This document shows positions 693 through 15,310 of a DNA stretch of 64,000 bases, piece after piece; the stretch's first letter is position 1; each line of letters begins with the position of its first letter. The notes under the pieces are model-generated. The model saw only the letters and a list, made by a program, of their open reading frames with translations, made no database searches and was not told the DNA's origin. The DNA is from Bacteroidota bacterium (GTDB lineage Bacteria; Bacteroidota; Bacteroidia; 2-12-FULL-35-15): assembly GCA_029237775.1 (NCBI GenBank), contig JAQZBR010000004.1, positions 868,001-932,000 on the forward strand. Direction: 5' to 3'. A program made the translations under genes and the position numbers.

Positions 693-763
693 GGTCCTGT
701 GGCCGAGCGGTTAGGCTGAGCTCTGCAAAAGCTCCTACAGCGGTTCAAATCCGCTCGGGACCT
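693..763 (+). tRNA. tRNA-Cys (anticodon GCA)
   Basis: The acceptor stem pairs GGTCCTG with CGGGACC with one G-U pair. The anticodon stem GAGCT/AGCTC holds the loop CTGCAAA, giving anticodon GCA. The T arm contains GGTTCAAATCC. The discriminator base is T, as expected for tRNA-Cys. CCA is not encoded. The 3' end of this gene is the integration site of the downstream island. Confidence 0.97.
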
Positions 764-767
764 CAAA
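750..767 (+). repeat. Left attachment core (attL) inside the tRNA-Cys 3' end
   Basis: The 18 bp TCCGCTCGGGACCTCAAA cover the tRNA T-arm/acceptor 3' end and four bases beyond. The same 18 bp recur exactly at 15024-15041, and a one-mismatch copy lies at 24378-24395. A tRNA 3' end repeated at the far side of an integrase-bearing segment is the classic att arrangement of tyrosine-recombinase elements. Confidence 0.8.
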
Positions 768-966: not shown

Positions 967-1407
967 ATGATAAAATATAATCGAGATAAACGATCCCCTC
1001 GACCCAAAAATGCGATAGTGTCTAAGGTGATGAGCGCCAATAAATCTAAAAACACTAAGCCTGAACTACTATTACGGAAGGCATTATGGGCAGAAGGTAT
1101 CAAGGGCTACAGAATTCATTCTAAATTACTGCCTGGTAAACCCGACATTGCTTTCATTTCGAAAAAAGTTGCTTTGTTCATTAATGGATGTTTTTGGCAC
1201 CGATGTCCCTATTGTAATTATCAATTGCCTAAAAATAACACCGCGTTCTGGCAAAATAAATTCGAAAAAAATGTTGAGCGTGACAATAAAAAAATCACAG
1301 CTTTGAAGGAAATAGGTTGGACTACAATAACCATTTGGGAATGTGAACTGCAAAAAAATCACAAAGAACAAATTCTAAAAGTTCAACGGGCTTTGAACAA
1401 AAGTTAG
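967..1407 (+). CDS. vsr: Very short patch repair endonuclease (Vsr)
   Basis: A 146-residue protein of the Vsr family, which nicks DNA 5' of the T in T:G mismatches formed by deamination of 5-methylcytosine. Visible features are E33 in the N-terminal helix, D60 in PGKPDIAF (the metal-binding Asp), the core NGCFWHRCPYC with H78 and Cys pairs fitting the structural zinc site, an FW...N..RD segment, and the C-terminal GWTTITIWECE. Length is typical. It precedes a C5 cytosine methyltransferase, the usual partner, since m5C creates the mismatches it repairs. The gap of about 150 bp and a promoter before the methyltransferase suggest separate transcription. Confidence 0.92.
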   Translation: MIKYNRDKRSPRPKNAIVSKVMSANKSKNTKPELLLRKALWAEGIKGYRIHSKLLPGKPDIAFISKKVALFINGCFWHRCPYCNYQLPKNNTAFWQNKFEKNVERDNKKITALKEIGWTTITIWECELQKNHKEQILKVQRALNKS

Positions 1408-1516: not shown

Positions 1517-1548
1517 TTTGGATCCTACATTTAGCGGGATTATATTTG
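1517..1548 (+). promoter_or_regulatory. Bacteroidota promoter of the methyltransferase-endonuclease operon
   Basis: TTTG at 1517-1520, a 20-nt spacer and TATATTTG at 1541-1548 fit the Bacteroidota -33/-7 consensus (TTTG, TAnnTTTG) perfectly. Transcription would start only about 8-10 nt before the ATG at 1564, so the mRNA would be almost leaderless. The in-frame TTG at 1546 lies inside the -7 box and is therefore unlikely to be the start codon. Confidence 0.6.
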
Positions 1549-1563
1549 CAAAAAGGTATTTTA

Positions 1564-3123
1564 ATGAAAAGAGCAATTGATCTATATAGTGGTATCGGTG
1601 GATGGACACTTGGAATGAAGTTATCCGGAATTGAAAACGTTTCTTCCTTCGAATGGTGGAAAGATGCGAACCAAACTCACAATTTCAATTTTGGTACATC
1701 ACATAAAGAAGTTAATATTCGAGAGCTTAATATTAAAAAAGATTTAGTTTTTGATAAGCAAATTGATTTTGTAGTTGGGAGCCCACCTTGTACTCAATTC
1801 TCATTTGCTAATAAGGGAGGTAATGGAGATATTGCTGATGGGCTAATAGATATTTACAAATTTTTAGAGGTTGTTGCTTATCTGAAGCCTAAATACTGGG
1901 CAATGGAAAACGTACCTCGGGTAGCAGGAATTCTAAGAGAACAAATTGAAAAAGGTGGCCAATTACATAAATTTAAAAAATTAATTCCTGTAATTGAGGT
2001 CATTGATACATCAGATTTCGGAGTTCCTCAAAGCAGAAAACGAATGATTGCAGGGAATTTTCCAATTGAGCTTTTTAACTCCTATAAATCAAAGATTGTT
2101 AAAAAGACTCTTGGTGATGTCTTAAATAATCTTAGCGGTGACCAAGTAGTTGATACTAATTATGGTTATACGATGCCAAAAAGTCAACTCACGGATGCAG
2201 AGTACGAACCAGATTTATCAAGGATGGAAGCGAGAGTAAACAGAGACATGAAATCGTTTCATCCAGTATATAATAATATGAGTTTTCCTGAAAACCTAAG
2301 TAAACCAGCGAGAACTGTTACTGCAACATGCACAAGAGTTTCAAGGGAAAGCATAATTGTTAAATCACCTACAGGATATAGAAGATTAAGCGTAAGGGAA
2401 AGAGGTGTTGTGCAAGGTTTTCCAATTACATACCAATTCTATGGTAGCACCTTGAATTCGAAGTTCAAAATGATCGGAAACGCAGTTCCGCCAATCGTAA
2501 CATATTATCTCTTTCAGAGTATGTTAGGAACTGATTTATCAAACTTAGTGACTCCGGATAAAGCAGCATATCAGCACAAAAGTCCAGTTGTCCCAATCCC
2601 CAAATCAAAATTTGATAATGTTAAAGCTAACTTTCCTGAAGACAGAAAGTTTATGTATGCGATCCCTAATCTAAGATATGGAAGTGGTGTCCGGTTTGAG
2701 TTATCTAACAATTTAAAGAACGATAAACAGGTTTGGAGCTTAAAATTCTTTTATGGTAACTCGAAGAATATTAAAGCTGTTTCCCTTGACTCCAAATTAT
2801 ATAATTTATTAGCGAAAAAATTAAGTTCAACTGATTTAAAAAAGATCAATGAAATTACCAAAGACTTTATAAATGATCATAAAGGCATTAACAGTAAATC
2901 TCTTCAAAAAATGTGGGTTACAAAAGACGAAGCCCATAAACCATTTGATTTTATTGACGATATAGGAGAATTAATTAAAAAGGCGGATAAATTGTGCGAA
3001 TTGAAACTTGATGCTAAAATAATAGAGGGTATTCTTAAAGAAGACAATAAAAAGTTAGCTTTGAATTATCGTTCAGTGATCCTTGGCTTTATTATATTAT
3101 CAAAAATTAACGAAATCCTTTAA
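1564..3123 (+). CDS. C5 cytosine-specific DNA methyltransferase (type II R-M)
   Basis: It transfers a methyl group to cytosine C5 in the recognition site. Motif I is DLYSGIGG (residues 6-13). Motif IV is GSPPCTQFS with catalytic Cys76, motif VI is MENVPRV, and motif VIII contains GVPQSRKRM. The C-terminal GFP and IGNAVPP segments correspond to motifs IX and X. At 519 residues it is longer than most enzymes of this class: about 170 residues follow motif X, Lys-rich and without motifs I recognise, possibly an extra DNA-contact or partner-binding domain. ATG 1564 is chosen over TTG 1546 because AAAGG precedes it and motif I sits at its usual distance. The endonuclease gene follows after 9 nt, so the two are co-transcribed. 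Confidence 0.95.
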   Translation: MKRAIDLYSGIGGWTLGMKLSGIENVSSFEWWKDANQTHNFNFGTSHKEVNIRELNIKKDLVFDKQIDFVVGSPPCTQFSFANKGGNGDIADGLIDIYKFLEVVAYLKPKYWAMENVPRVAGILREQIEKGGQLHKFKKLIPVIEVIDTSDFGVPQSRKRMIAGNFPIELFNSYKSKIVKKTLGDVLNNLSGDQVVDTNYGYTMPKSQLTDAEYEPDLSRMEARVNRDMKSFHPVYNNMSFPENLSKPARTVTATCTRVSRESIIVKSPTGYRRLSVRERGVVQGFPITYQFYGSTLNSKFKMIGNAVPPIVTYYLFQSMLGTDLSNLVTPDKAAYQHKSPVVPIPKSKFDNVKANFPEDRKFMYAIPNLRYGSGVRFELSNNLKNDKQVWSLKFFYGNSKNIKAVSLDSKLYNLLAKKLSSTDLKKINEITKDFINDHKGINSKSLQKMWVTKDEAHKPFDFIDDIGELIKKADKLCELKLDAKIIEGILKEDNKKLALNYRSVILGFIILSKINEIL

Positions 3124-3132
3124 ACATACCTT

Positions 3133-3744
3133 ATGAAAATCGCTAAAATACACTCGCACTTAAATGGGTTTGAATGGATTCAGTATCACCAGAAATCTGT
3201 ATGGGATGAAATTGTAAATACAATTAATAGTGTTGATGCGAGCAAATACATAACAAAAGTAAGTGAGGAAAAAACAATGAAAGGAAGGCTGTTATATAGT
3301 CCTACCGAACTCAACGAAAAGTTTAAAAGTGAACTCAGTAAATTAAAGTGGAAGGAAAGTAGAACTAGCTATTGGGTTACCGATGATTACAAATTGATAA
3401 GTAAGACAATGCGCTTAAGCAGAGCAGACCAAAAAGCTGAAATCTTAGCTGCGGGCAAAACTCCTATTCCGTCTTATAATCAAACCGATTTTGTAAAAAA
3501 CCGTATTGCTGTCGAAGTCCAATTGGGAAAATACACTTTCATTGCTTACGATCTTTTTGTAAAGCATTTGGCTTTCTATGTTGGTGATACAATAGATCTT
3601 GGAATTGAGATATTGCCAATGAAAAGCATGCAAAGAAAGATGTCTTCGGGCCCAGGATATTTTGAAGGCGCATTATATGACATAGCACGACAAGGGCGTG
3701 GAGTCCCTGCTGTACCTTTAATCCTTGTGGGAATCGAAGAATAG
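3133..3744 (+). CDS. BglII/BstYI-like type II restriction endonuclease
   Basis: A 203-residue protein. The segment from residue 119 reads DFVKNRIAVEVQ, giving D119-x8-E128-x-Q130. This is the unusual BglII-type active site (Asp, Glu and Gln, where most PD-(D/E)XK enzymes have Lys), with the same spacing I recall for BglII (D84, E93, Q95). A conserved-looking tail, SGPGYFEGALYDIARQGRG, follows, as in BglII/BstYI-family proteins that cut GATC-centred sites. It is 9 nt downstream of the methyltransferase, so it is the cognate endonuclease. The target is probably GATC-centred, but the sequence does not prove it. Confidence 0.85.
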   Translation: MKIAKIHSHLNGFEWIQYHQKSVWDEIVNTINSVDASKYITKVSEEKTMKGRLLYSPTELNEKFKSELSKLKWKESRTSYWVTDDYKLISKTMRLSRADQKAEILAAGKTPIPSYNQTDFVKNRIAVEVQLGKYTFIAYDLFVKHLAFYVGDTIDLGIEILPMKSMQRKMSSGPGYFEGALYDIARQGRGVPAVPLILVGIEE

Positions 3745-3905: not shown

Positions 3906-4682
3906 ATGATTCTTAATTATGAAGAGATAAAAACGAAAAACATTCTTACTGATGCATCTGATAATGAGTTTGCAGATGGAAGCTATAATCTTACCATAAG
4001 TCAAATCATCGACATGAAAGGCTCCGGTAGCCAAGCTTTCACATTAAAGCCCCAAGGAATGGCATATGTAATTTTCAAAGAAAAATTAACAATGCCTTCC
4101 AATGTAATCGGGTTCGCACATGTGAAAACGAGCCTCACTAAAAGAGGGATTATGGCAACGAATATTGGAATTATTGACCCTAACTATGTTGGTTATATTT
4201 CGACTTTACTAATTAATTTTGGGAAGAGTGATTGCGTCTTGACCGAAGGGGATTCTGCATTGAGAGTTACTTTTGCGAACATGAACGGCCCGACTAAAAA
4301 AATTGCTATAAAAAACAACAACCTGGATTTAAAAAAATATACTCAGAAAACGCAAAAAACCATCGGTAATCTTGATGAAAAATTTTTAAATCTCAATTCA
4401 GTTGCAACGGATATTAAAAGTTCCGTCTATAAAGCTTTGATAGGCCTCTCGATTGTCTTTACTGCTGCTAATTTTGTAGTTGGGGGTTATTTCAATTATA
4501 AAAATTCGAACGAGAGAGAGTTAGATAGGGCCGTTAAAAAATATGAAATGTCACTTTCCACAACTGATGAAAATAATAAGCTTCTAAACGAACAGTTGAA
4601 AAGGTATGATTTCATGTTGCAATCGTTACAGGATAGCTTAAAATCGCAGGCCGTTGAGATTAAAAAGCTCAAAAAGAAATAA
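3906..4682 (+). CDS. dUTPase/dCTP-deaminase-fold protein with membrane anchor and coiled coil
   Basis: A 258-residue protein. Residues about 1-135 match the trimeric dUTPase/dCTP deaminase fold: ADGSYNLTI at motif 1, P-x-N-x-I-G-F before VKTSLTKRG at motif 2, GIIDPNYVGYI at motif 3, and a final GDSALRVTF strand. The motif 3 Asp is kept. The Glu that is catalytic in dCTP deaminase (in GCIVLEFYN of E. coli Dcd) aligns with Leu, the motif 1 Asp is Asn, and the glycine-rich dUTPase motif 5 tail is absent, so catalysis is doubtful. One membrane helix (about 177-200) is followed by a charged coiled coil to the end. The stop codon overlaps the next ATG by one base (TAATG). I infer a membrane-tethered nucleotide sensor or a modified pyrophosphatase. 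Confidence 0.75.
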   Translation: MILNYEEIKTKNILTDASDNEFADGSYNLTISQIIDMKGSGSQAFTLKPQGMAYVIFKEKLTMPSNVIGFAHVKTSLTKRGIMATNIGIIDPNYVGYISTLLINFGKSDCVLTEGDSALRVTFANMNGPTKKIAIKNNNLDLKKYTQKTQKTIGNLDEKFLNLNSVATDIKSSVYKALIGLSIVFTAANFVVGGYFNYKNSNERELDRAVKKYEMSLSTTDENNKLLNEQLKRYDFMLQSLQDSLKSQAVEIKKLKKK

Positions 4683-5569
4683 TGAGTATCGGTAAATTTA
4701 CCTTTGATTCAGTTGATGAAATTCAACTTCATATTTTGGAGAAATTATTTTCCGAGGGCCAATTTATTGTTACTAGAGAGCACAGAACTCTTGAAATTTG
4801 CCACGTTAATCTCTGCTTATCGAATCCTCGGAACAGAAATACTTATAACACTAAAAGAAAATGGAAATTTCCTTTGGCAATAGGCGAATTTGCTTGGCAT
4901 GTTTCTGCTTCTAATAGCCTTGATTTTATAACATATTACGCAAGACAATGGAAAGACTTTTCTCTCGATGGAAAGTTAATTCGTGAAAGCTGTTACGGCC
5001 ATAAAATATTCAAAATTGACTCTTCTGGAGATAGTCAATGGAATAGAGTAGTGAAATTACTAAAGTATGATAAGTTTTCAAGAAGGGCCGTTTTAGCTCT
5101 TTATGACTCTAATGGAGGCATTGATGACTCTGTAAAGGATGTAGCTTGTGTTTGCACGATTCAATTTTTAATTAGAAATGAAAAACTCGATGCAATTGTT
5201 AACATGAGAAGTAACGACTTAATTTGGGGATTCCCTTACGATGTCTATTTCCTTACTATGCTGCAAGAATTACTCTCGCTCGAATTGGAAGTTGAAATTG
5301 GCAAATATTACCATAATGTGGGCTCAATGCATATTTACGAAAAACATTTTGGTTTGGGAAAAGAGATGTTAAACTATACTATCCAAAAAAAGATTAGTGA
5401 GCCGAAGATGGAAGAAATAGGCGCTCTTAAAGAGTTTATTAAGTATGAAGAATTGATAAGAACTGGGAAAATTAACACGAAAGAAATTCAGGATTTTTCA
5501 ATACACCAGTACTGGAAAAGTTTATTAATTCATTTAGGAAATTTTAAAAATGAAAAGATAAACAAATAA
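4682..5569 (+). CDS. Thymidylate synthase / dCMP hydroxymethylase-fold protein
   Basis: A 295-residue protein aligning along the thymidylate synthase (TS) core. GEFAWHV corresponds to HELLWFL, SRRAVLALYD to SRRIIVSAWN (phosphate-binding R134 and R135), and ACVCTIQF to PCHAFFQF with the catalytic Cys kept as C156 and Gln as Q161. MRSND (R176, S177, D179) matches QRSCD, and MHIYEKH (H217, Y219) matches THLYSNH. The pyrimidine-discriminating Asn of PFN is Asp (D187 in PYD), as in T4 dCMP hydroxymethylase, which points to cytosine-nucleotide binding. The His after the catalytic Cys is Val. It overlaps the dUTPase-fold gene by one base, so they are translationally coupled. It is not the housekeeping ThyA. 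Whether it is catalytic or a dCMP sensor is unknown. Confidence 0.78.
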   Translation: MSIGKFTFDSVDEIQLHILEKLFSEGQFIVTREHRTLEICHVNLCLSNPRNRNTYNTKRKWKFPLAIGEFAWHVSASNSLDFITYYARQWKDFSLDGKLIRESCYGHKIFKIDSSGDSQWNRVVKLLKYDKFSRRAVLALYDSNGGIDDSVKDVACVCTIQFLIRNEKLDAIVNMRSNDLIWGFPYDVYFLTMLQELLSLELEVEIGKYYHNVGSMHIYEKHFGLGKEMLNYTIQKKISEPKMEEIGALKEFIKYEELIRTGKINTKEIQDFSIHQYWKSLLIHLGNFKNEKINK

Positions 5570-5678
5570 ATATAAAGAATCATTGTTTTAGATTCGTGTG
5601 TTGAACAATTTGTTTCTACAAAAGGCTGCGTAGGAAAAGTAATGTCAAAAAAAGTAAAAAGTGAATAGTCGTAAGGGA

Positions 5679-7004
5679 ATGTCAAGATCCATTTTAAATA
5701 AAGAAGAAATTCGAGGAAAGTATGAAGAGCTTCTGAAAGATGACAGTACAAATCATCAAAGAAGGGGTTTTGAATTCGAAAATATGATTTATTCCATCCT
5801 TTATAATGAATCTTTAGAGCCGAGAGCAAGTTATAAACCTGTAGGTGAACAAGTAGATGGTTCATTCTTTTGGCAAGGCCAAACCTTCCTATTAGAGGCG
5901 AAATGGGTAAAAGACCCTGTACCTGCTTCCAGTATATATGCCTTTAAAGGGAAAGTAGATGGCAAATTTCACACGAGTAGTGGTGTTTTTATTTCCGTTA
6001 ATGGTTACAGTGATGATGCAGAAGATGCTTTACTAAAGGGAAAAACCTTAAATATTTTGCTTTTTGATGAAAATGACATTACCATTATTTTTAATGGAGA
6101 AGTTACATTTCTTGAAGTACTTAAATTTAAACTTCGTGAAGCTGGAGATACTGGCAGTTTAAGAGTACCCTATACATTAAAAGAAAGGGCTGAAAAAATA
6201 TCAAAAACAAATTCAGAATTAATTTCTGTAGAAAGATTCTATTCCGACATAAATGAAATTATTCCAAAAAAAGATTTGCTAATTGGTGATCTATTGGTGT
6301 TTGTAGAAGGAAAAACAGATATTCCAATTATTAAAAAATTGCTAGAGCCAATAAAAAAACATTATTCACTTTCTTATAAAGTTGATGTTTTAAATGGGGC
6401 TAATAATATTCGTCAGTTACCTTCTCTCTTAAGTGTTTATAGTGATTACAAAAAAGCAAAGGCAGTTATTGTTTTTTTAGATGATGATCAAGCGGCAAGA
6501 CAATTGGAAAACGTTATTGTTAACATAGGAGAACAGCTTCAAAAATCATCTATTCCTGTTAGACCCATTTTTTTACACATCAACGAAAGTTTAAAACACA
6601 AGCTTTCTAAAAGAAAATTATCTATTGAAACTCTTAGGAGCGAATTAATTTTTGAAAAGTTAGAGACCTTTATTCAGCAAATAGCCCAAGATTATTACGA
6701 TCCAGAAGTTTACATACCACTTGAGACTTTAAAAAATAGCTTAGAAACACTTGACTGGAATTTTAAGCAAGGAGTAATTTATGGACGAGAAGATGAAAGC
6801 GGACATTCCACCTCAATTGATTCATTAGAAGAATTGATTAAATATTTGGATGAAGAAATAATTCATGCTATGAATGGAGAAATGCCAATGCATTGGTTAA
6901 AAGAACAGGATTATTTAGATTATGATCACGAAGTAAGAGAATACTTACGTGATAACCATTTAGGCTATATAAAAAAAATGGGTTGGGATATAAACAATTT
7001 ATGA
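5679..7004 (+). CDS. Restriction-endonuclease-like domain fused to a TOPRIM domain
   Basis: 441 residues from ATG 5679 (GTG 5661 would add six). The N-terminal domain begins with RRGFEFENMIYSIL, typical of Mrr-like nucleases, and carries a PD-(D/E)XK core: D60 in VDGSFF, then E73-A-K75 in LLEAKW. Around residue 205 a TOPRIM-like domain starts: LLVFVEGKTD supplies the metal-binding Glu and VIVFLDDDQAA the DxD. The C-terminal 150 residues are helical and acidic. TOPRIM of this VEGxTD type occurs in OLD and Gabija nucleases, but no ATPase is present here. It lies 109 nt after the TS-fold gene, so co-transcription is possible but unproven. It is probably a two-nuclease defence protein. Confidence 0.75.
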   Translation: MSRSILNKEEIRGKYEELLKDDSTNHQRRGFEFENMIYSILYNESLEPRASYKPVGEQVDGSFFWQGQTFLLEAKWVKDPVPASSIYAFKGKVDGKFHTSSGVFISVNGYSDDAEDALLKGKTLNILLFDENDITIIFNGEVTFLEVLKFKLREAGDTGSLRVPYTLKERAEKISKTNSELISVERFYSDINEIIPKKDLLIGDLLVFVEGKTDIPIIKKLLEPIKKHYSLSYKVDVLNGANNIRQLPSLLSVYSDYKKAKAVIVFLDDDQAARQLENVIVNIGEQLQKSSIPVRPIFLHINESLKHKLSKRKLSIETLRSELIFEKLETFIQQIAQDYYDPEVYIPLETLKNSLETLDWNFKQGVIYGREDESGHSTSIDSLEELIKYLDEEIIHAMNGEMPMHWLKEQDYLDYDHEVREYLRDNHLGYIKKMGWDINNL

Positions 7005-7373
7005 CTCTATAATCCTTGTCCGAATTGAAGATTAAAGGTCTATCAATGTATTACAATTAAAAGATCGAGCATATAGACGCAAAAATAAAAAAAGCCTTGA
7101 AGTAAGCCGTTTTTAAACGGTTAATTTTCTACTCCACTACCGAAGCTTCGACTACCTTAAGAACGATAATTTCCCGATTACTTTAACGGCTTTAAAGACA
7201 GTTTCATTCATACCCCCTTTTTTCCTCTTAGTTATCAAGGCAACAAAATTTTCTCTGTTGGAAACACTGGAGAAAAATTTTATTTGTTTGATTATCATGA
7301 AGTTATATATAATTTCGAATCATAGCAAGTTTCCCCAAGTTAATATATGGGTATAACTCTAAAAGAAGAAAAA
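7005..7373 (+). promoter_or_regulatory. Integrase upstream region with hairpins and a promoter
   Basis: This 369-bp stretch has no gene. It holds a short palindrome CCGTTT-TT-AAACGG (7107-7120), the palindrome CGAAGCTTCG near 7141, and a longer inverted repeat AAAATTTTCTC (7245-7255) against GAGAAAAATTTT (7270-7281). A promoter candidate follows: TTTG at 7287-7290, a 19-nt spacer and TAATTTCG at 7310-7317 (one mismatch to TAnnTTTG). The hairpins just upstream could be regulator or integrase arm-type sites. Confidence 0.45.
7330..7343 (+). repeat. Shared 14-bp leader motif, copy 1 (integrase)
   Basis: TTTCCCCAAGTTAA lies 30 nt before the integrase ATG and is repeated exactly at 13085-13098, at nearly the same distance (27 nt) before the excisionase-like gene. 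An AT-rich run (ATAT) follows in both. It is probably a common operator or leader element of the element's recombination and replication genes. Confidence 0.6.
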
Positions 7374-8522
7374 ATGAACTACAATTATTCAATTAAAGCT
7401 ATCCTCAGGAAGGATAAGACTAAAAAAAATGGAAAATGCCCGATTAATTTAATGGTAACATTTGGAGGGAAACAACTAAAGCTTCCAACTCAGCTCGAGG
7501 CAGAAGAAAAATTTTGGGATAAAAACCTTTTACAAATAAAAAAGGGTGAACAAGATTATGGACTGAAAAACGCTAAACTAATGCGTTTAAAAAACAAGTT
7601 ACAAACTCACATATATAAACTTGAACTGTCTGAGCAAATTGTAAATGGCGAGGCTATTAAAAACTTTCTTGGCACAAGCGAAAATAAAAATTCCTTTTAT
7701 ACTTATTTTGAAAAGCAAATACAACTTTGGAAAAGCAAGAAAAAAGAATCTACATTGATTGGTTATAGCCACACTTTAAGTGTGTTGAGAAAATTTAAAG
7801 CTGAAGTTAAATTCATTGATATTAATTTGCTATTCGTAAAAGAGTTTGAACAATACTTAAGAGATGTACGAAAAGTGGGAGACGGTGGAGCTTTTAATAG
7901 ACAAAAACATTTAAGAGCAGTGATCCGAGAAGCAGTAAGGGAAAAAAAATTGAATGAAAGTCCTTATGCGAACGGCAACTTTCAAATAAAAAAATCCGAA
8001 AATAAAAAAAGGTTCTTAACTATTGAGGAGGTTGAACAAATTGAAAAGGCTACAATACCGGCAAAACGAACCCGCTTATTAGTAGCAAGAGATATGTTTC
8101 TTTTTTGTTGCTATACAGGCTTACGATATTCTGATATGCAAAAATTATGTTGGGAGAATATTGTTAACGGAGAGATTAATATAGTAATGCAAAAAACCGG
8201 GAAGCAACTAACTATTAATTTGAATAATAAAGCCTCAGGAATTATTGAAAAATATAAGAACAATGAAAGCTCCTTTGTCTTTGAAAAGTTATCTAACCAA
8301 AAGTTAAATGTAGGGGTGAAAAAAATATTCCGTTTGGCCGGAACATCAGAACAATTTACTTTTCACGATTCTCGTCATGCATTTGCATGTGCCCTTGTAG
8401 CTCGAGGCGTTAGCCTAACAATTATAAGAGACCTAATGGGACACGCCTCTATAAAAGAAACAGATAAATACGCAAAAGTTGACCAAAAACAAAAGCATTC
8501 CGCGATATTACTGTTGGACTAA
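7374..8522 (+). CDS. Tyrosine recombinase / integrase (Bacteroidota type)
   Basis: A 382-residue site-specific recombinase. The N-terminal arm-binding domain (KCPINLMVTFGGKQLKLPT...FWDKN) and the helical core-binding domain are typical of Bacteroidota integrases. The catalytic domain is complete: R251 in TGLRYSD, K274, H331 and R334 in HDSRH, H357 in LMGHAS, and nucleophile Y366 in TDKYAKV. The ATG at 7374 is chosen because AAAAGAAGAAAAA precedes it and the protein then starts at the arm domain; the upstream in-frame ATG at 7347 lies in the leader motif region. Its likely substrate is the tRNA-Cys core at 750-767/15024-15041. Confidence 0.95.
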   Translation: MNYNYSIKAILRKDKTKKNGKCPINLMVTFGGKQLKLPTQLEAEEKFWDKNLLQIKKGEQDYGLKNAKLMRLKNKLQTHIYKLELSEQIVNGEAIKNFLGTSENKNSFYTYFEKQIQLWKSKKKESTLIGYSHTLSVLRKFKAEVKFIDINLLFVKEFEQYLRDVRKVGDGGAFNRQKHLRAVIREAVREKKLNESPYANGNFQIKKSENKKRFLTIEEVEQIEKATIPAKRTRLLVARDMFLFCCYTGLRYSDMQKLCWENIVNGEINIVMQKTGKQLTINLNNKASGIIEKYKNNESSFVFEKLSNQKLNVGVKKIFRLAGTSEQFTFHDSRHAFACALVARGVSLTIIRDLMGHASIKETDKYAKVDQKQKHSAILLLD

Positions 8523-10819: not shown

Positions 10820-10872
10820 AAATATAATCTGTTTACAGATTTTTCGTTTAATTATACCACAGATTATTGTAC

Positions 10873-11967
10873 ATGCAACCTGAAATAAATTATAAAACAT
10901 TTGAAATTGCTCGTGTTTCGAGAGGGTATAGCCAAAAAGAGTTTGCGGAAAGATTAAATGTTGAACAAGGCACTGTCTCCAAAATCGAAAGAAACATATT
11001 GGGTGTTAAAGAGGATTTACTTGAAAGAATTTCTGCGGTTTTAAATTATCCAATATCGTTTTTTTACGAGGATATAATTTTATTATCTCCTCTTCTAACA
11101 CATTATCGTAAAAGGAAGAGTTTGGCTACAAATGTTCTTGACACGATAGAATACAATCTGTTTATCAGGAAACATTTTTTTAAGAAATTGCTTAAATCGG
11201 TCGACATTCCAAATCGAATTCTGCACTTAAATACTTACGATAATGGTACTCCGGAGGATATAGCTAGACTCGTTCGGCAAAAGTGGAATATCCCGAGAGG
11301 TCCTATAAACAATTTAACACGGGTGGTTGAGACTGCCGGTATTATTGTTTTACAAATTGAGTATAACGACAATAAACTGGATGGCGAATTACTGCCTGAC
11401 GAGGATTATTTACCTGTAATTTATCTGAATAAAAATCTTTCCGGAGACCGGCAGCGATTTACTTTGGCCCATGAGTTAGGGCACTTAATTATGCATTATG
11501 CCAAGGATTTTATTCCTTCTATGACTGATAACTTCGAGGAAGAGGCAAATAGATTTGCTTCCGAATTTTTAATGCCCGAAAATGATATAAAAGCATCGTT
11601 TTATGGTGGCGTTTCTTTTCCCCAGCTCGCTGATCTTAAAAGATATTGGAAAGTTTCTATGGCTGCACTTATTAGAAGAGGAAAAGATTTAGGAATGATT
11701 AACGAATCACGATATAAGTCTTTAATGATTCAGCTAAGTCGTGCAGGATATAGAAAAAGTGAACCTGAATTTGATGTTAAAAAAGAAACACCTACTCTTA
11801 TTTACCAATTAATTAAAGTCCATTTGGATGAGCTTGGGTTTACTTCTGAAGAATTAGCTACTTTACTTTGTGTTACGCAATCTGAATTGAATAGCTTAAT
11901 TGATTTTTATTCGAACAGTCCTTTAAAAGTTGTGCATAATACCCATTCGAAACATTCGCTTAAATAG
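10873..11967 (+). CDS. XRE HTH plus ImmA/IrrE metallopeptidase-like regulator
   Basis: 364 residues from ATG 10873; a TTG two codons upstream is less likely. The N-terminal XRE domain reads ARVSRGYSQKEFAERLNVEQGTVSKIE. A linker region leads to an ImmA/IrrE (M78) domain with zinc motif HELGHLIMH (H200, E201, H204) and the downstream helix EEEANRFASEFLMP that supplies the third ligand. The last 70 residues contain a second HTH-like helix set (EELATLLCVTQSELNSLI). Such proteins sense a signal and cleave or release a partner repressor or toxin. It is the second gene of the operon starting at 10238. Confidence 0.88.
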   Translation: MQPEINYKTFEIARVSRGYSQKEFAERLNVEQGTVSKIERNILGVKEDLLERISAVLNYPISFFYEDIILLSPLLTHYRKRKSLATNVLDTIEYNLFIRKHFFKKLLKSVDIPNRILHLNTYDNGTPEDIARLVRQKWNIPRGPINNLTRVVETAGIIVLQIEYNDNKLDGELLPDEDYLPVIYLNKNLSGDRQRFTLAHELGHLIMHYAKDFIPSMTDNFEEEANRFASEFLMPENDIKASFYGGVSFPQLADLKRYWKVSMAALIRRGKDLGMINESRYKSLMIQLSRAGYRKSEPEFDVKKETPTLIYQLIKVHLDELGFTSEELATLLCVTQSELNSLIDFYSNSPLKVVHNTHSKHSLK

Positions 11968-13031: not shown

Positions 13032-13084
13032 CGTTTGTTAATAATTTGTTAATTAAAAAAGGCGGTTTTTCCCAAAACTCGAAC

Positions 13085-13098
13085 TTTCCCCAAGTTAA
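13085..13098 (+). repeat. Shared 14-bp leader motif, copy 2 (excisionase/rep)
   Basis: An exact copy of TTTCCCCAAGTTAA found before the integrase. Here it precedes the HTH-Rep operon by 27 nt and is followed by a longer ATATATA run. It suggests co-regulation of excision/replication with integration. Confidence 0.6.
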
Positions 13099-13125
13099 GA
13101 TATATATAACTAATATATTTTAACC

Positions 13126-13392
13126 ATGACTAAATTAAACAGAATGATCTCGGAGTCTATTGATAGCTCTGTAGAAAACAAAGTACTTCCACTAATTAAA
13201 GAATTTCTAACTCGACAAGTCTTAGGACAAAAAGTTTTGCTTACCGAAAATGACTTACGCCTTTTTCTCGATGTTTCTTCGAGTACGATAAGAAGATTGC
13301 GAAAAAGTGGTTTACCCGCTTCTAAAGTGGGCGGGAAATGGTACTACAAAAAGGCAGATGTTTCCAAATGGGTGGAGGGTAAAAAATGGTAG
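13126..13392 (+). CDS. Excisionase-like helix-turn-helix protein
   Basis: An 88-residue protein. After a helical N-terminus, the segment LLTENDLRLFLDVSSSTIRRLRKSGLPASKVGGKWYYKKADVSKWVEGK is a MerR-type/HTH_17 excisionase domain (HTH followed by a basic wing). Such proteins act as recombination directionality factors or as replication-operon regulators. Its stop overlaps the rep start by 7 nt, so translation is coupled. Confidence 0.82.
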   Translation: MTKLNRMISESIDSSVENKVLPLIKEFLTRQVLGQKVLLTENDLRLFLDVSSSTIRRLRKSGLPASKVGGKWYYKKADVSKWVEGKKW

Positions 13393-14947: not shown

Positions 14948-15023
14948 TCCTAAAAATAACCCCTGTTAAAATACTTGAACCGGAAAGGCTTATTTACAGT
15001 GGAGATAATCCGTTTTATGGAAG

Positions 15024-15041
15024 TCCGCTCGGGACCTCAAA
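15024..15041 (+). repeat. Right attachment core (attR)
   Basis: An exact 18-bp copy of the tRNA-Cys 3' end (see 750-767). Bases to its left do not continue the tRNA, so this is a tRNA-end fragment created by integration. What follows should be the pre-integration flank of the tRNA gene. Confidence 0.8.
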
Positions 15042-15043
15042 AG

Positions 15044-15080
15044 ATCCCTTCTGTACAAAGTACAGAAGGGATTTTTATTT
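15044..15080 (+). terminator. Strong terminator adjoining attR, probably the original tRNA terminator
   Basis: A perfect 13-bp stem ATCCCTTCTGTAC/GTACAGAAGGGAT with loop AAA is followed by TTTTATTT. It starts 3 nt past the att core, as expected for the tRNA-Cys terminator before the island inserted. A degenerate version follows the outer att copy at 24398. Confidence 0.85.
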
Positions 15081-15146
15081 CGCAGAATCTTAAGATCCTT
15101 CATCTTGAAGATTCGATTAAATAAAAAAGACCTCAGCTGCCGTTAG

Positions 15147-15310
15147 GCAGATGAAAGAATCATGTTTGCAAAGCGACCTCTCCGAGATTTTACAAATCTG
15201 AATTTAATTTGCTTAATATTTGTAATAAAATCCACCAGTTACGATAGCAGATGAAGAGATTATGCTTGTTAAGCAACCTCTTCGAGATTCTGGAAATTTA
15301 ATTTACTTAA
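15147..15310. repeat. Imperfect ~65-bp direct repeat with 100-bp period
   Basis: A unit beginning GCAGATGAA at 15147 and again at 15247 shares the order GCAGATGA, ATG-TTG, AAGC-ACCTCT-CGAGATT. Part of the unit (TGTTTGCAAAGCGACCT) also occurs near 24482 beside the outer att copy. The stretch 15081-15373 holds no gene; it is a relic of repeated flanking DNA. Confidence 0.5.

What the first reader, a model, noticed from the sequence alone, without database searches (positions are those of the whole stretch)
3906..5569. Coupled dUTPase-fold membrane protein and thymidylate-synthase-fold protein: candidate undescribed defence or nucleotide-sensing system
Seen: two genes overlap by one base (TAATG). 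The first has a dUTPase/dCTP-deaminase-type core with weakened catalytic motifs, one membrane helix and a cytoplasmic coiled coil. The second keeps the TS catalytic Cys and phosphate-binding Arg residues. They sit in an integrase-bearing island between a type II R-M set and a nuclease-TOPRIM gene. Known: both folds bind deoxypyrimidine nucleotides, and phages strongly alter these pools or make hydroxymethyl-dCMP. Inference: the pair senses or alters pyrimidine nucleotides during infection, with the membrane protein as sensor or effector.
Basis: partly seen in the sequence, partly recalled or inferred. Interest (0 to 1): 0.85.

Follow-up and report, generated by a model that had tools for sequence, protein, structure and literature searches.

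The report
Membrane deaminase-fold protein paired with hydroxymethylase
Two overlapping bacterial genes, one for a membrane protein built on a nucleotide-binding fold and one for an enzyme predicted to modify a DNA building block, recur together in distant bacteria and may be a little-known antiviral alarm.

Summary
ORF1 (3906-4682) is a dCTP-deaminase/dUTPase-fold domain plus one membrane helix. ORF2 (4682-5569) is a thymidylate-synthase-fold enzyme, closest among solved structures to the CMP hydroxymethylase MilA. They lie in a 14.3-kb tRNA-Cys island whose empty site is seen in two same-genus genomes.

The pairing is not local. Of the 80 genome loci kept as most similar to ORF2, the top seven have the ORF1 family directly upstream (six intact, one cut by its contig end), in three phyla; none of the other 73 do. 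With the window's, these eight synthases form one clade (100/99) and keep the catalytic residues. Residue rules from the MilA study predict dCMP 5-hydroxymethyltransferase.

ORF1 and 14 relatives lack the deaminase glutamate. Paired loci are enriched for C5-cytosine restriction-modification genes and a dCMP-deaminase-like gene.

Best reading (about 0.4): a nucleotide-alarm defence unit in which ORF2 makes a 5-substituted deoxycytidine nucleotide and ORF1 senses it at the membrane. Function is untested.

A thymidylate-synthase domain was validated in phage defence in 2026, so this is a new variant of a known kind.

The parts
3906..4682 (+). ORF1 (DCD-TM): dCTP-deaminase/dUTPase-fold domain (about residues 1-135), membrane helix (about 174-192), C-terminal helix (203-257)
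   Evidence: Pfam/NCBIfam, AlphaFold2 model and fold matches, hydropathy
4682..5569 (+). ORF2: thymidylate-synthase-fold enzyme of the MilA/dCMP-hydroxymethylase type, predicted dCMP 5-hydroxymethyltransferase
   Evidence: Pfam, PDB sequence matches, model and fold match, residue alignment
967..1407 (+). Vsr-like mismatch endonuclease
   Evidence: Pfam PF03852 1.4e-23
1546..3123 (+). C5-cytosine DNA methyltransferase
   Evidence: Pfam PF00145 3.9e-44
3133..3744 (+). BglII-family restriction endonuclease
   Evidence: Pfam PF09195 2.3e-27; PADLOC REase_II 2.8e-82
5661..7004 (+). Mrr-type nuclease with a weak TOPRIM-like match; neighbour, not conserved with the pair
   Evidence: Pfam Mrr_cat 6.2e-5, above cut-off; DUF3226 and OLD-like TOPRIM below cut-off; 0 of 7 paired loci carry a match
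7347..8522 (+). tyrosine integrase of the island
   Evidence: Pfam Phage_integrase 1.9e-26
693..764 (+). tRNA-Cys, the integration target
   Evidence: ARAGORN
747..767 (+). left attachment repeat (tRNA 3' end)
   Evidence: direct repeat D2; empty site in two same-genus genomes
15021..15041 (+). right attachment repeat, 20 of 21 bases identical to the left copy
   Evidence: direct repeat D2

Best explanation
A two-gene nucleotide-alarm defence unit. (1) Inferred from residues: ORF2 transfers a one-carbon unit from methylene-tetrahydrofolate to C5 of dCMP, giving 5-hydroxymethyl-dCMP. (2) Inferred: host or phage kinases raise it to the triphosphate during infection. (3) Inferred: the DCD domain of ORF1, which keeps a dUTPase-like motif 3 but has lost the deaminase glutamate and altered the motif-2 arginines, binds this or another 5-substituted deoxycytidine nucleotide without turning it over quickly. 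(4) Inferred: binding rearranges the ORF1 oligomer in the membrane, and its helix and periplasmic coiled coil disturb the membrane or signal outward, stopping infection. (5) Inferred: in a subset, a divergent dCMP-deaminase-like gene removes the signal. Shown by sequence: the folds, the conserved coupled operon, the intact synthase active site, the missing deaminase glutamate, the mobile island and the enrichment of C5-cytosine restriction genes.
For: Pairing: six intact DCD-TM genes directly upstream of the synthase plus one contig-truncated case among the 7 most similar of 80 loci, 0 of the other 73. Gene gaps -1, -4, +12, -4, -4, +8, -4 in the 7 intact pairs, window included (starts taken mechanically). 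Paired synthases one clade, 100/99. Active site kept in 8 of 8: E69, R134, R135, C156, R176, S177, D179, D187, H217, Y219. Asp at the base-reading position goes with cytosine, Ser and Arg with deoxyribose, by the MilA study PMC5175136. E/D at the deaminase Glu position in 0 of 15 DCD-TM proteins (position set). Own genome has a separate gene that reads as an ordinary thyA. Distant DCD-TM proteins often sit beside other nucleotide enzymes. 0 of 80 viral synthase loci have a DCD-TM. Island with integrase, att repeats and empty sites.
Against: No phage, toxicity or ligand data exist here. ORF1 keeps the motif-3 Asp (D91) and dUTPase-like residues, so it may be an active hydrolase rather than a sensor. 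The membrane part of the model is low confidence. No dedicated killing domain is seen. One DCD-TM with the same signature residues (S. meliloti) has no synthase in the 12.6 kb searched (tblastn E<=1), so the two are separable. The association with restriction genes could reflect shared residence in defence islands. In the paired loci neither the window's integrase nor its BglII-type or Mrr-type gene recurs (0 of 7 each). ORF1-like and ORF2-like genes are rare: 4 and 3 of 395 genomes of the phylum, the window's own included.
Confidence: 0.4

Rival explanations
1. Enzymatic pool changer: ORF1 is an active membrane-anchored dCTP/dUTP pyrophosphatase feeding dCMP to ORF2, as T4 pairs a dCTPase with dCMP hydroxymethylase (recalled). 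Together they drain dCTP or poison phage DNA synthesis with no separate signal.
For: ORF1's closest solved relatives are DCD-family dUTPases; D91 is D in 14 of 15 family members, P92 and N104 are invariant. Nucleotide depletion is an established defence logic: the dGTPase CloA (PMC12265719).
Against: Motif-2 arginines replaced (window K74 and K79); the Pfam dUTPase match stops at profile position 106 of 129, so the C-terminal arm is not matched and the membrane helix follows. A membrane anchor is not needed for hydrolysis.
Confidence: 0.22
2. Accessory of m5C restriction-modification: the unit senses or clears 5-methyl-dCMP/dCTP released when C5-methylated host DNA is degraded, either as an alarm keyed to the host's own methylation or as pool sanitation.
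For: C5-MTase 4 of 7 paired loci against 1 of 73 others (p 1e-4), Vsr 3 of 7 against 0 of 73 (p 4e-4), dCMP deaminase 3 of 7 against 0 of 73 (p 4e-4). The window adds C5-MTase and Vsr. The REases found beside the pair belong to three different families: BglII, NaeI, MvaI/BcnI.
Against: Two intact loci (L134, L138) show no C5-MTase in about 12.8 kb. Vsr with C5-MTase is a common restriction pairing (recalled). The control loci are not matched for residence in defence islands.
Confidence: 0.17
3. DNA-marking system: ORF2's product ends up as 5-hydroxymethylcytosine or a further modified base in DNA, with ORF1 limiting unmodified dCTP.
For: Other synthases of this family sit with aGPT-PPlase/ADDT-type genes (67 of 73 other loci), and two distant DCD-TM loci carry HMUDK_hel; the Pfam names refer to thymine or 5-hmdU modification.
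Against: No base transferase, DNA kinase or polymerase-type match among the 10 window proteins scanned (not every ORF of the island was scanned); 0 of 7 paired loci carry ADDT. A membrane tether has no place in it.
Confidence: 0.1
4. Not defence: a small metabolic or nucleoside-biosynthesis module carried by chance on an island.
For: The unpaired synthase that joins the paired clade in the quick tree (L139, Bacillota) sits beside an AMP-binding ligase-like and a GMC-oxidoreductase-like gene (my reading of the sequences), and MilA itself is a biosynthetic enzyme.
Against: Same tight operon in three phyla, in 4 of 7 loci with a C5-MTase; I recognised no biosynthetic cluster around the six intact loci (reading only).
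Confidence: 0.11

Closest known systems
MilA (CMP 5-hydroxymethylase, mildiomycin) and phage T4 dCMP hydroxymethylase
   Same: ORF2 shares fold, nucleophilic Cys, catalytic Glu and cytosine-reading Asp
   Different: ORF2 has the Ser/Arg pair of deoxyribose enzymes, not MilA's Ala/Lys; it is cellular, island-borne and coupled to a membrane DCD protein
DCD-family dUTPases / dCTP deaminases (8y1w, 9ln0, E. coli Dcd)
   Same: ORF1 residues 1-135 share the fold, Z 18.6 at best
   Different: no deaminase Glu, altered motif 2, C-terminal membrane helix; below the NCBIfam dCTP deaminase cut-off (52.3 against 92.8 bits)
Thymidylate-synthase and 5hmdU-kinase defence domains of DefensePredictor (PMC13092281)
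   Same: both domains newly validated in phage defence; dUTPase, MazG and aGPT-PPlase domains predicted
   Different: the text read does not say which domains share a system and names no membrane DCD partner; its figures are not held, so its dUTPase system could be related. The window has no HMUDK_hel or dNMP kinase among the 10 proteins scanned
Kongming (dITP alarm)
   Same: logic of a host enzyme making an abnormal dNMP that is raised to a triphosphate and sensed (PMC12948488 passage)
   Different: purine, different protein families, NAD+ depletion effector; no such match among the 10 proteins scanned
AvcD-like / dCTP deaminase defence
   Same: deoxycytidine nucleotides; distant DCD-TM G267 sits beside a protein with a dCMP-deaminase domain and a weak P-loop match; the deaminase-like gene of L136 matches PADLOC dCTPase (9.4e-21)
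   Different: deaminase of another fold; not found in the window pair or the neighbours scanned

Membership tests
Thymidylate synthase superfamily (ORF2) | TS fold and nucleophilic Cys with catalytic Glu and phosphate Args | tested here: met
   Pfam 2.5e-24 above cut-off; C156, E69, R134, R135, R176 in 8 of 8 paired synthases; fold
Ordinary thymidylate synthase (ThyA) | Asn at the base-reading position; equivalog score | tested here: not met
   Asp187 instead of Asn in 8 of 8; best NCBIfam equivalog 70.4 bits against cut-off 327
dCMP hydroxymethylase (as T4 gp42) | Asp for cytosine, Ser + Arg for deoxyribose | tested here: met
   D187, S177, R134 in 8 of 8, by the rules of PMC5175136
dCMP hydroxymethylase (as T4 gp42) | makes 5-hydroxymethyl-dCMP | not testable with these tools
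   needs enzymology
dCTP deaminase (ORF1) | DCD/dUTPase fold | tested here: met
dCTP deaminase (ORF1) | catalytic Glu (E. coli E138) | tested here: not met
   Leu101 in the window; E/D in 0 of 15 family members (position)
dUTPase (ORF1) | motif-3 Asp and motif-2 Arg plus C-terminal motif 5 | tested here: inconclusive
   D91 present, motif-2 Arg replaced by Lys; Pfam dUTPase match ends at 106 of 129
Kongming | KomA deaminase, HAM1-like and SIR2-like genes | tested here: not met
   no such Pfam match in the 10 proteins scanned between 967 and 11967 (some ORFs of that stretch were not scanned); component families partly recalled
AvcD-type dCTP/dCMP deaminase defence | P-loop kinase plus zinc deaminase domain | tested here: not met
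   neither domain in ORF1, ORF2 or the 8 neighbours scanned; no PADLOC match for ORF1 or ORF2
TS / 5hmdU-kinase defence (DefensePredictor) | HMUDK_hel kinase beside the synthase (whether the validated system needs it is not told in the text read) | tested here: not met
   no HMUDK_hel among the 10 proteins scanned in the window; 0 of 7 paired loci
Integrative island at a tRNA | integrase, repeat of tRNA 3' end, empty site in a relative | tested here: met

The most novel reading that the evidence does not exclude
A membrane-bound immune receptor for 5-substituted deoxycytidine nucleotides: ORF2 makes hydroxymethyl-dCMP, and ORF1 reads its triphosphate, or 5-methyl-dCTP set free when C5-methylated host DNA is broken down, so that the cell's own cytosine methylation doubles as an alarm for DNA degradation. 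The linked restriction system deals with ordinary phages and this unit with phages that carry modified cytosine or degrade host DNA.
Probability: 0.25. Interest if true: 0.92.

Novelty: new variant of a known kind. Interest (0 to 1): 0.72.

Why it matters
If right, it adds a pyrimidine, membrane-anchored branch to nucleotide-alarm immunity and gives a cellular role for a dCMP hydroxymethylase, an enzyme known from T-even phages. It also offers a direct test of whether modified deoxycytidine nucleotides act as immune signals. The operon is small, orthologues occur in named, cultured strains, and its key residues are known, so experiments can start at once.

Tried and rejected
Chance proximity: rejected, the same two-gene order recurs in three phyla and the paired synthases form one clade. 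Housekeeping dTMP synthesis: rejected, the genome has another gene that reads as an ordinary thyA (not scanned by Pfam) and ORF2 has Asp for Asn. Phage-derived pair: not supported, 0 of 80 viral synthase loci (best 80 of 228) have a DCD-TM (7 have a plain dUTPase/DCD without a membrane segment), and a viral scan with the DCD-TM alignment found 22 pattern matches, none a relative. Mrr-type gene as third component: not supported, 0 of 7. The first single-protein genome scan with ORF1 found none; such a scan reaches close relatives only.

A three-gene unit without membrane helix (DCD + metalloprotease-like + about 101 aa) answers the same profile and was set aside. Of the 16 matching genomes, the own one aside, I fetched regions of six, chosen by frame length, and left nine; one of the six (L050) reads as an ordinary dUTPase and one (L046) as a DCD protein without membrane segment. 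Of the 22 I looked at G286 only. The quick tree was replaced by the careful one, whose bootstrap had just not settled. HMMs for Vsr, MTase and deaminase were built partly from the tested loci, so repeats the test with queries from the window and S. meliloti; one search gives 2 of 73, not 1 of 73, for the MTase. In viral loci the deaminase query also matches 5 of 80.

Papers. Passages only: PMC10853773, PMC7824862, PMC7159879, PMC5175136 with abstract, PMC12948488, PMC12265719 with abstract, PMC12839542. PMC13092281: sections 5, 6, 7, 8, 15 and passages; figures not held. Burroughs 2015 and Iyer 2013 (identifier recalled) are not held: nothing seen. Ten paper searches showed no title or abstract start on this pair, but several lists were capped (20 of 283, 10 of 167, 12 of 16, 15 of 572, 12 of 36) and one search was swamped by a short word.
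Full report
What is there. ORF1 (258 aa) begins with a domain that Pfam places in DCD (1.8e-8) and dUTPase (9.6e-5). Its AlphaFold2 model, built with six relatives, is confident over about the first 125 residues and matches dUTPases and dCTP deaminases, best 8y1w at Z 18.6, rmsd 1.8, 133 residues. A single hydrophobic segment lies near residues 174-192, followed by a long helix; the helix segment of the model is low confidence. ORF2 (295 aa) is a thymidylate-synthase-fold protein (Pfam 2.5e-24) whose closest solved relatives are MilA (2.1e-33) and then T4 dCMP hydroxymethylase (2.2e-14). Its model (pLDDT 87, pTM 0.88) matches MilA best. Neither protein matches PADLOC-DB at E<=1. The genome has a separate gene that reads as an ordinary thyA.

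Where it sits. A 21-base repeat of the tRNA-Cys 3' end (747-767 and 15021-15041, 20 of 21 identical) brackets a 14.3-kb segment of about 31-35% G+C, against about 39% further right, with a tyrosine integrase. In same-genus genome G407 the tRNA-side match (window 693-767) and the right-hand match (window 15021-15177) meet and overlap over the repeat, so the site is empty there; G410 shows the same overlap. Within the island the pair follows Vsr, a C5-cytosine methyltransferase and a BglII-family endonuclease, and precedes an Mrr-type nuclease gene.

The pair is a conserved operon. In samples of the window's phylum (not named by the tools), ORF1-like proteins were found in 4 of 395 genomes (E<=1e-8) and ORF2-like in 3 of 395 (E<=1e-14), the window's own genome included in both; the one other genome in both lists, G286, has the two hits 1.8 kb apart on one contig. 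In the window's family ORF2 is in 1 of 36 genomes, its own. A scan of the species-genome collection with a synthase alignment found 220 relatives and kept the best 80 (the other 140 were not examined). A nine-protein DCD-TM profile finds a match directly upstream of the synthase in L133-L138, six of the seven most similar loci. In the seventh, L132 (66% identical synthase), the contig begins inside the upstream gene, whose remaining C-terminus resembles ORF1's but is split between two frames. The other 73 loci have no match at E<=0.01. Hosts, by record title, are a Chitinophagaceae and a Binatia MAG, Sphingorhabdus, Antarcticirhabdus, Neorhizobium, Frateuria and Aminobacter; these fall in three phyla (labels in the tree). 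Gaps between the two genes are -1, -4, +12, -4, -4, +8 and -4 in the window and the six intact loci. The eight synthases, window included, form one clade with support 100/99, in all of 200 bootstrap trees (108 rows).

What ORF2 should do. All eight keep E69, R134, R135, C156, R176, S177, D179, D187, H217 and Y219. The MilA study (PMC5175136, abstract and passages) states that Asp at the position of D187 goes with cytosine substrates and Asn with uracil, and that Ser and Arg at the positions of S177 and R134 go with deoxyribose, Ala and Lys with ribose. The prediction is therefore dCMP 5-hydroxymethylation; methylation of dCMP is not excluded.

What ORF1 should do. The profile alignment to E. 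coli dCTP deaminase places window L101 at the catalytic E138 (entries with the native and the E138A residue show the position). Among 15 DCD-TM proteins none has E or D there. The motif-2 arginines are K74 and K79 in the window. D91 is D in 14 of 15, E in one. T75 and R120 are found in the window, L133-L138 and S. meliloti and in none of the other seven; N86, G88 and F105 are invariant in those eight and present in some of the others. Deaminase activity is therefore unlikely; binding, and perhaps slow hydrolysis, of a deoxypyrimidine nucleotide remains open. A hydrophobic segment is called in 14 of 15 (two segments in the Priestia member, none above threshold in G267). Because the nucleotide domain must face the cytosol, one membrane pass puts the C-terminal helix outside. 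The charge balance agrees in 5 of 7, is equal in the window and reversed in L134.

Company it keeps. With queries taken from the window and from S. meliloti (phmmer E<=1e-5), the 7 paired loci against the 73 others show C5-MTase 4 against 1 (p 1e-4), Vsr 3 against 0 (p 4e-4), dCMP-deaminase-like gene 3 against 0 (p 4e-4) and, with a Leptospira query, ADDT/aGPT-PPlase-type gene 0 against 67 (p 5e-7). The window's integrase, BglII-type and Mrr-type genes recur in 0 of 7. The restriction enzymes beside the pair belong to unrelated families: BglII (window), NaeI (L136), MvaI/BcnI (L137), which argues against simple joint inheritance. The deaminase gene lies divergent to ORF1 in L133, L136 and L138, and in S. 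meliloti, where no synthase was found in 12.6 kb. More distant DCD-TM proteins often lie beside other nucleotide enzymes. G286 has a synthase, a synthase-like protein that Pfam does not recognise, thymidylate kinase, HMUDK_hel and, by reading, a MazG-like gene. S. fredii has two genes annotated thymidylate synthase, HMUDK_hel and MazG. G267 has a dCMP-deaminase protein with a weak P-loop match and an HD phosphohydrolase, 15 bases apart. A. rubi has a methyltransferase and a protein with an adenylosuccinate-synthetase domain. The G353 member has a weak radical-SAM match next to it and a kinase-like protein further along. A Priestia member has an FMN oxidoreductase and no nucleotide enzyme that I recognised. 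The pattern suggests one membrane DCD protein with exchangeable nucleotide-modifying partners.

Mechanism. I commit, at about 0.4, to a nucleotide-alarm unit: ORF2 makes a 5-substituted deoxycytidine nucleotide and ORF1 reads it at the membrane. The closest logic in what I read is Kongming, where a host enzyme and a phage dNMP kinase make dITP (PMC12948488 passage). That nucleotide levels are sensed and depleted in defence is reported for Clover (PMC12265719). Thymidylate-synthase and 5hmdU-kinase domains occur in systems that protect E. coli from phages (PMC13092281 sections 5 and 15), and the same paper lists dUTPase, MazG and aGPT-PPlase domains among predictions not yet validated. Rivals are an active pool-changing enzyme pair, an accessory of m5C restriction, DNA marking, or an ordinary metabolic module. 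None of these can be settled by sequence.

Limits. The 73 comparison loci are the next most similar synthases, not loci matched for defence islands. Gene starts were taken mechanically. Residue numbers of E. coli proteins other than E138 are recalled. Not every ORF of the island was scanned (10 proteins). The claim that the pair is new in print rests on ten searches of an open-access library, several with capped lists, that lacks the 2015 nucleotide-systems paper and the figures of PMC13092281.

Noticed in passing
L047 6270-8392, L048 5942-8048, L049 5859-7835, L051 7299-9290 (antisense): A recurrent three-gene unit in four genomes of the window's class: a 101-102-aa protein, a 353-398-aa metalloprotease-like protein (HELGH motif) and a 199-222-aa DCD-fold protein without membrane segment, in L051 beside what reads as type I restriction genes; possibly another undescribed conflict system.
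   Followed up: partly
73 of the 80 loci L132-L211 (all but L132-L138); also L009, L012, L013: A large sister group of MilA-like synthases sits with an aGPT-PPlase3/ADDT-type gene (67 of 73) and often an ImmA/IrrE protein (63 of 73 by a family HMM, 12 of 73 with the window's own ImmA as query) in many phyla.
   Followed up: partly
L017 5774-12238; L018 467-5447; L030 346-7716: Recurrent kit in two genomes of the window's phylum and in S. fredii: ACP-like protein, HTH, ImmA, short synthase-like protein, HMUDK_hel kinase (in L018 by reading, fused to a kinase), second synthase and, in two of three, a MazG-like gene; a DCD-TM protein is present in two of the three.
   Followed up: partly
L019 6225-9729: DCD-TM protein, dCMP-deaminase protein with weak P-loop match and HD phosphohydrolase in one direction, 10 and 15 bases apart, possibly one nucleotide-depleting operon.
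   Followed up: no
window 7327-7348 and 13082-13103: A 22-base direct repeat (91% identical), one copy just upstream of the integrase and one just upstream of the small ORF at 13126; perhaps an integrase arm or regulator site.
   Followed up: no
window 10867-11967: HTH-ImmA/IrrE protein in the island scoring strongly against PADLOC RmrA (1.1e-66), a second possible defence or island-regulation gene.
   Followed up: no
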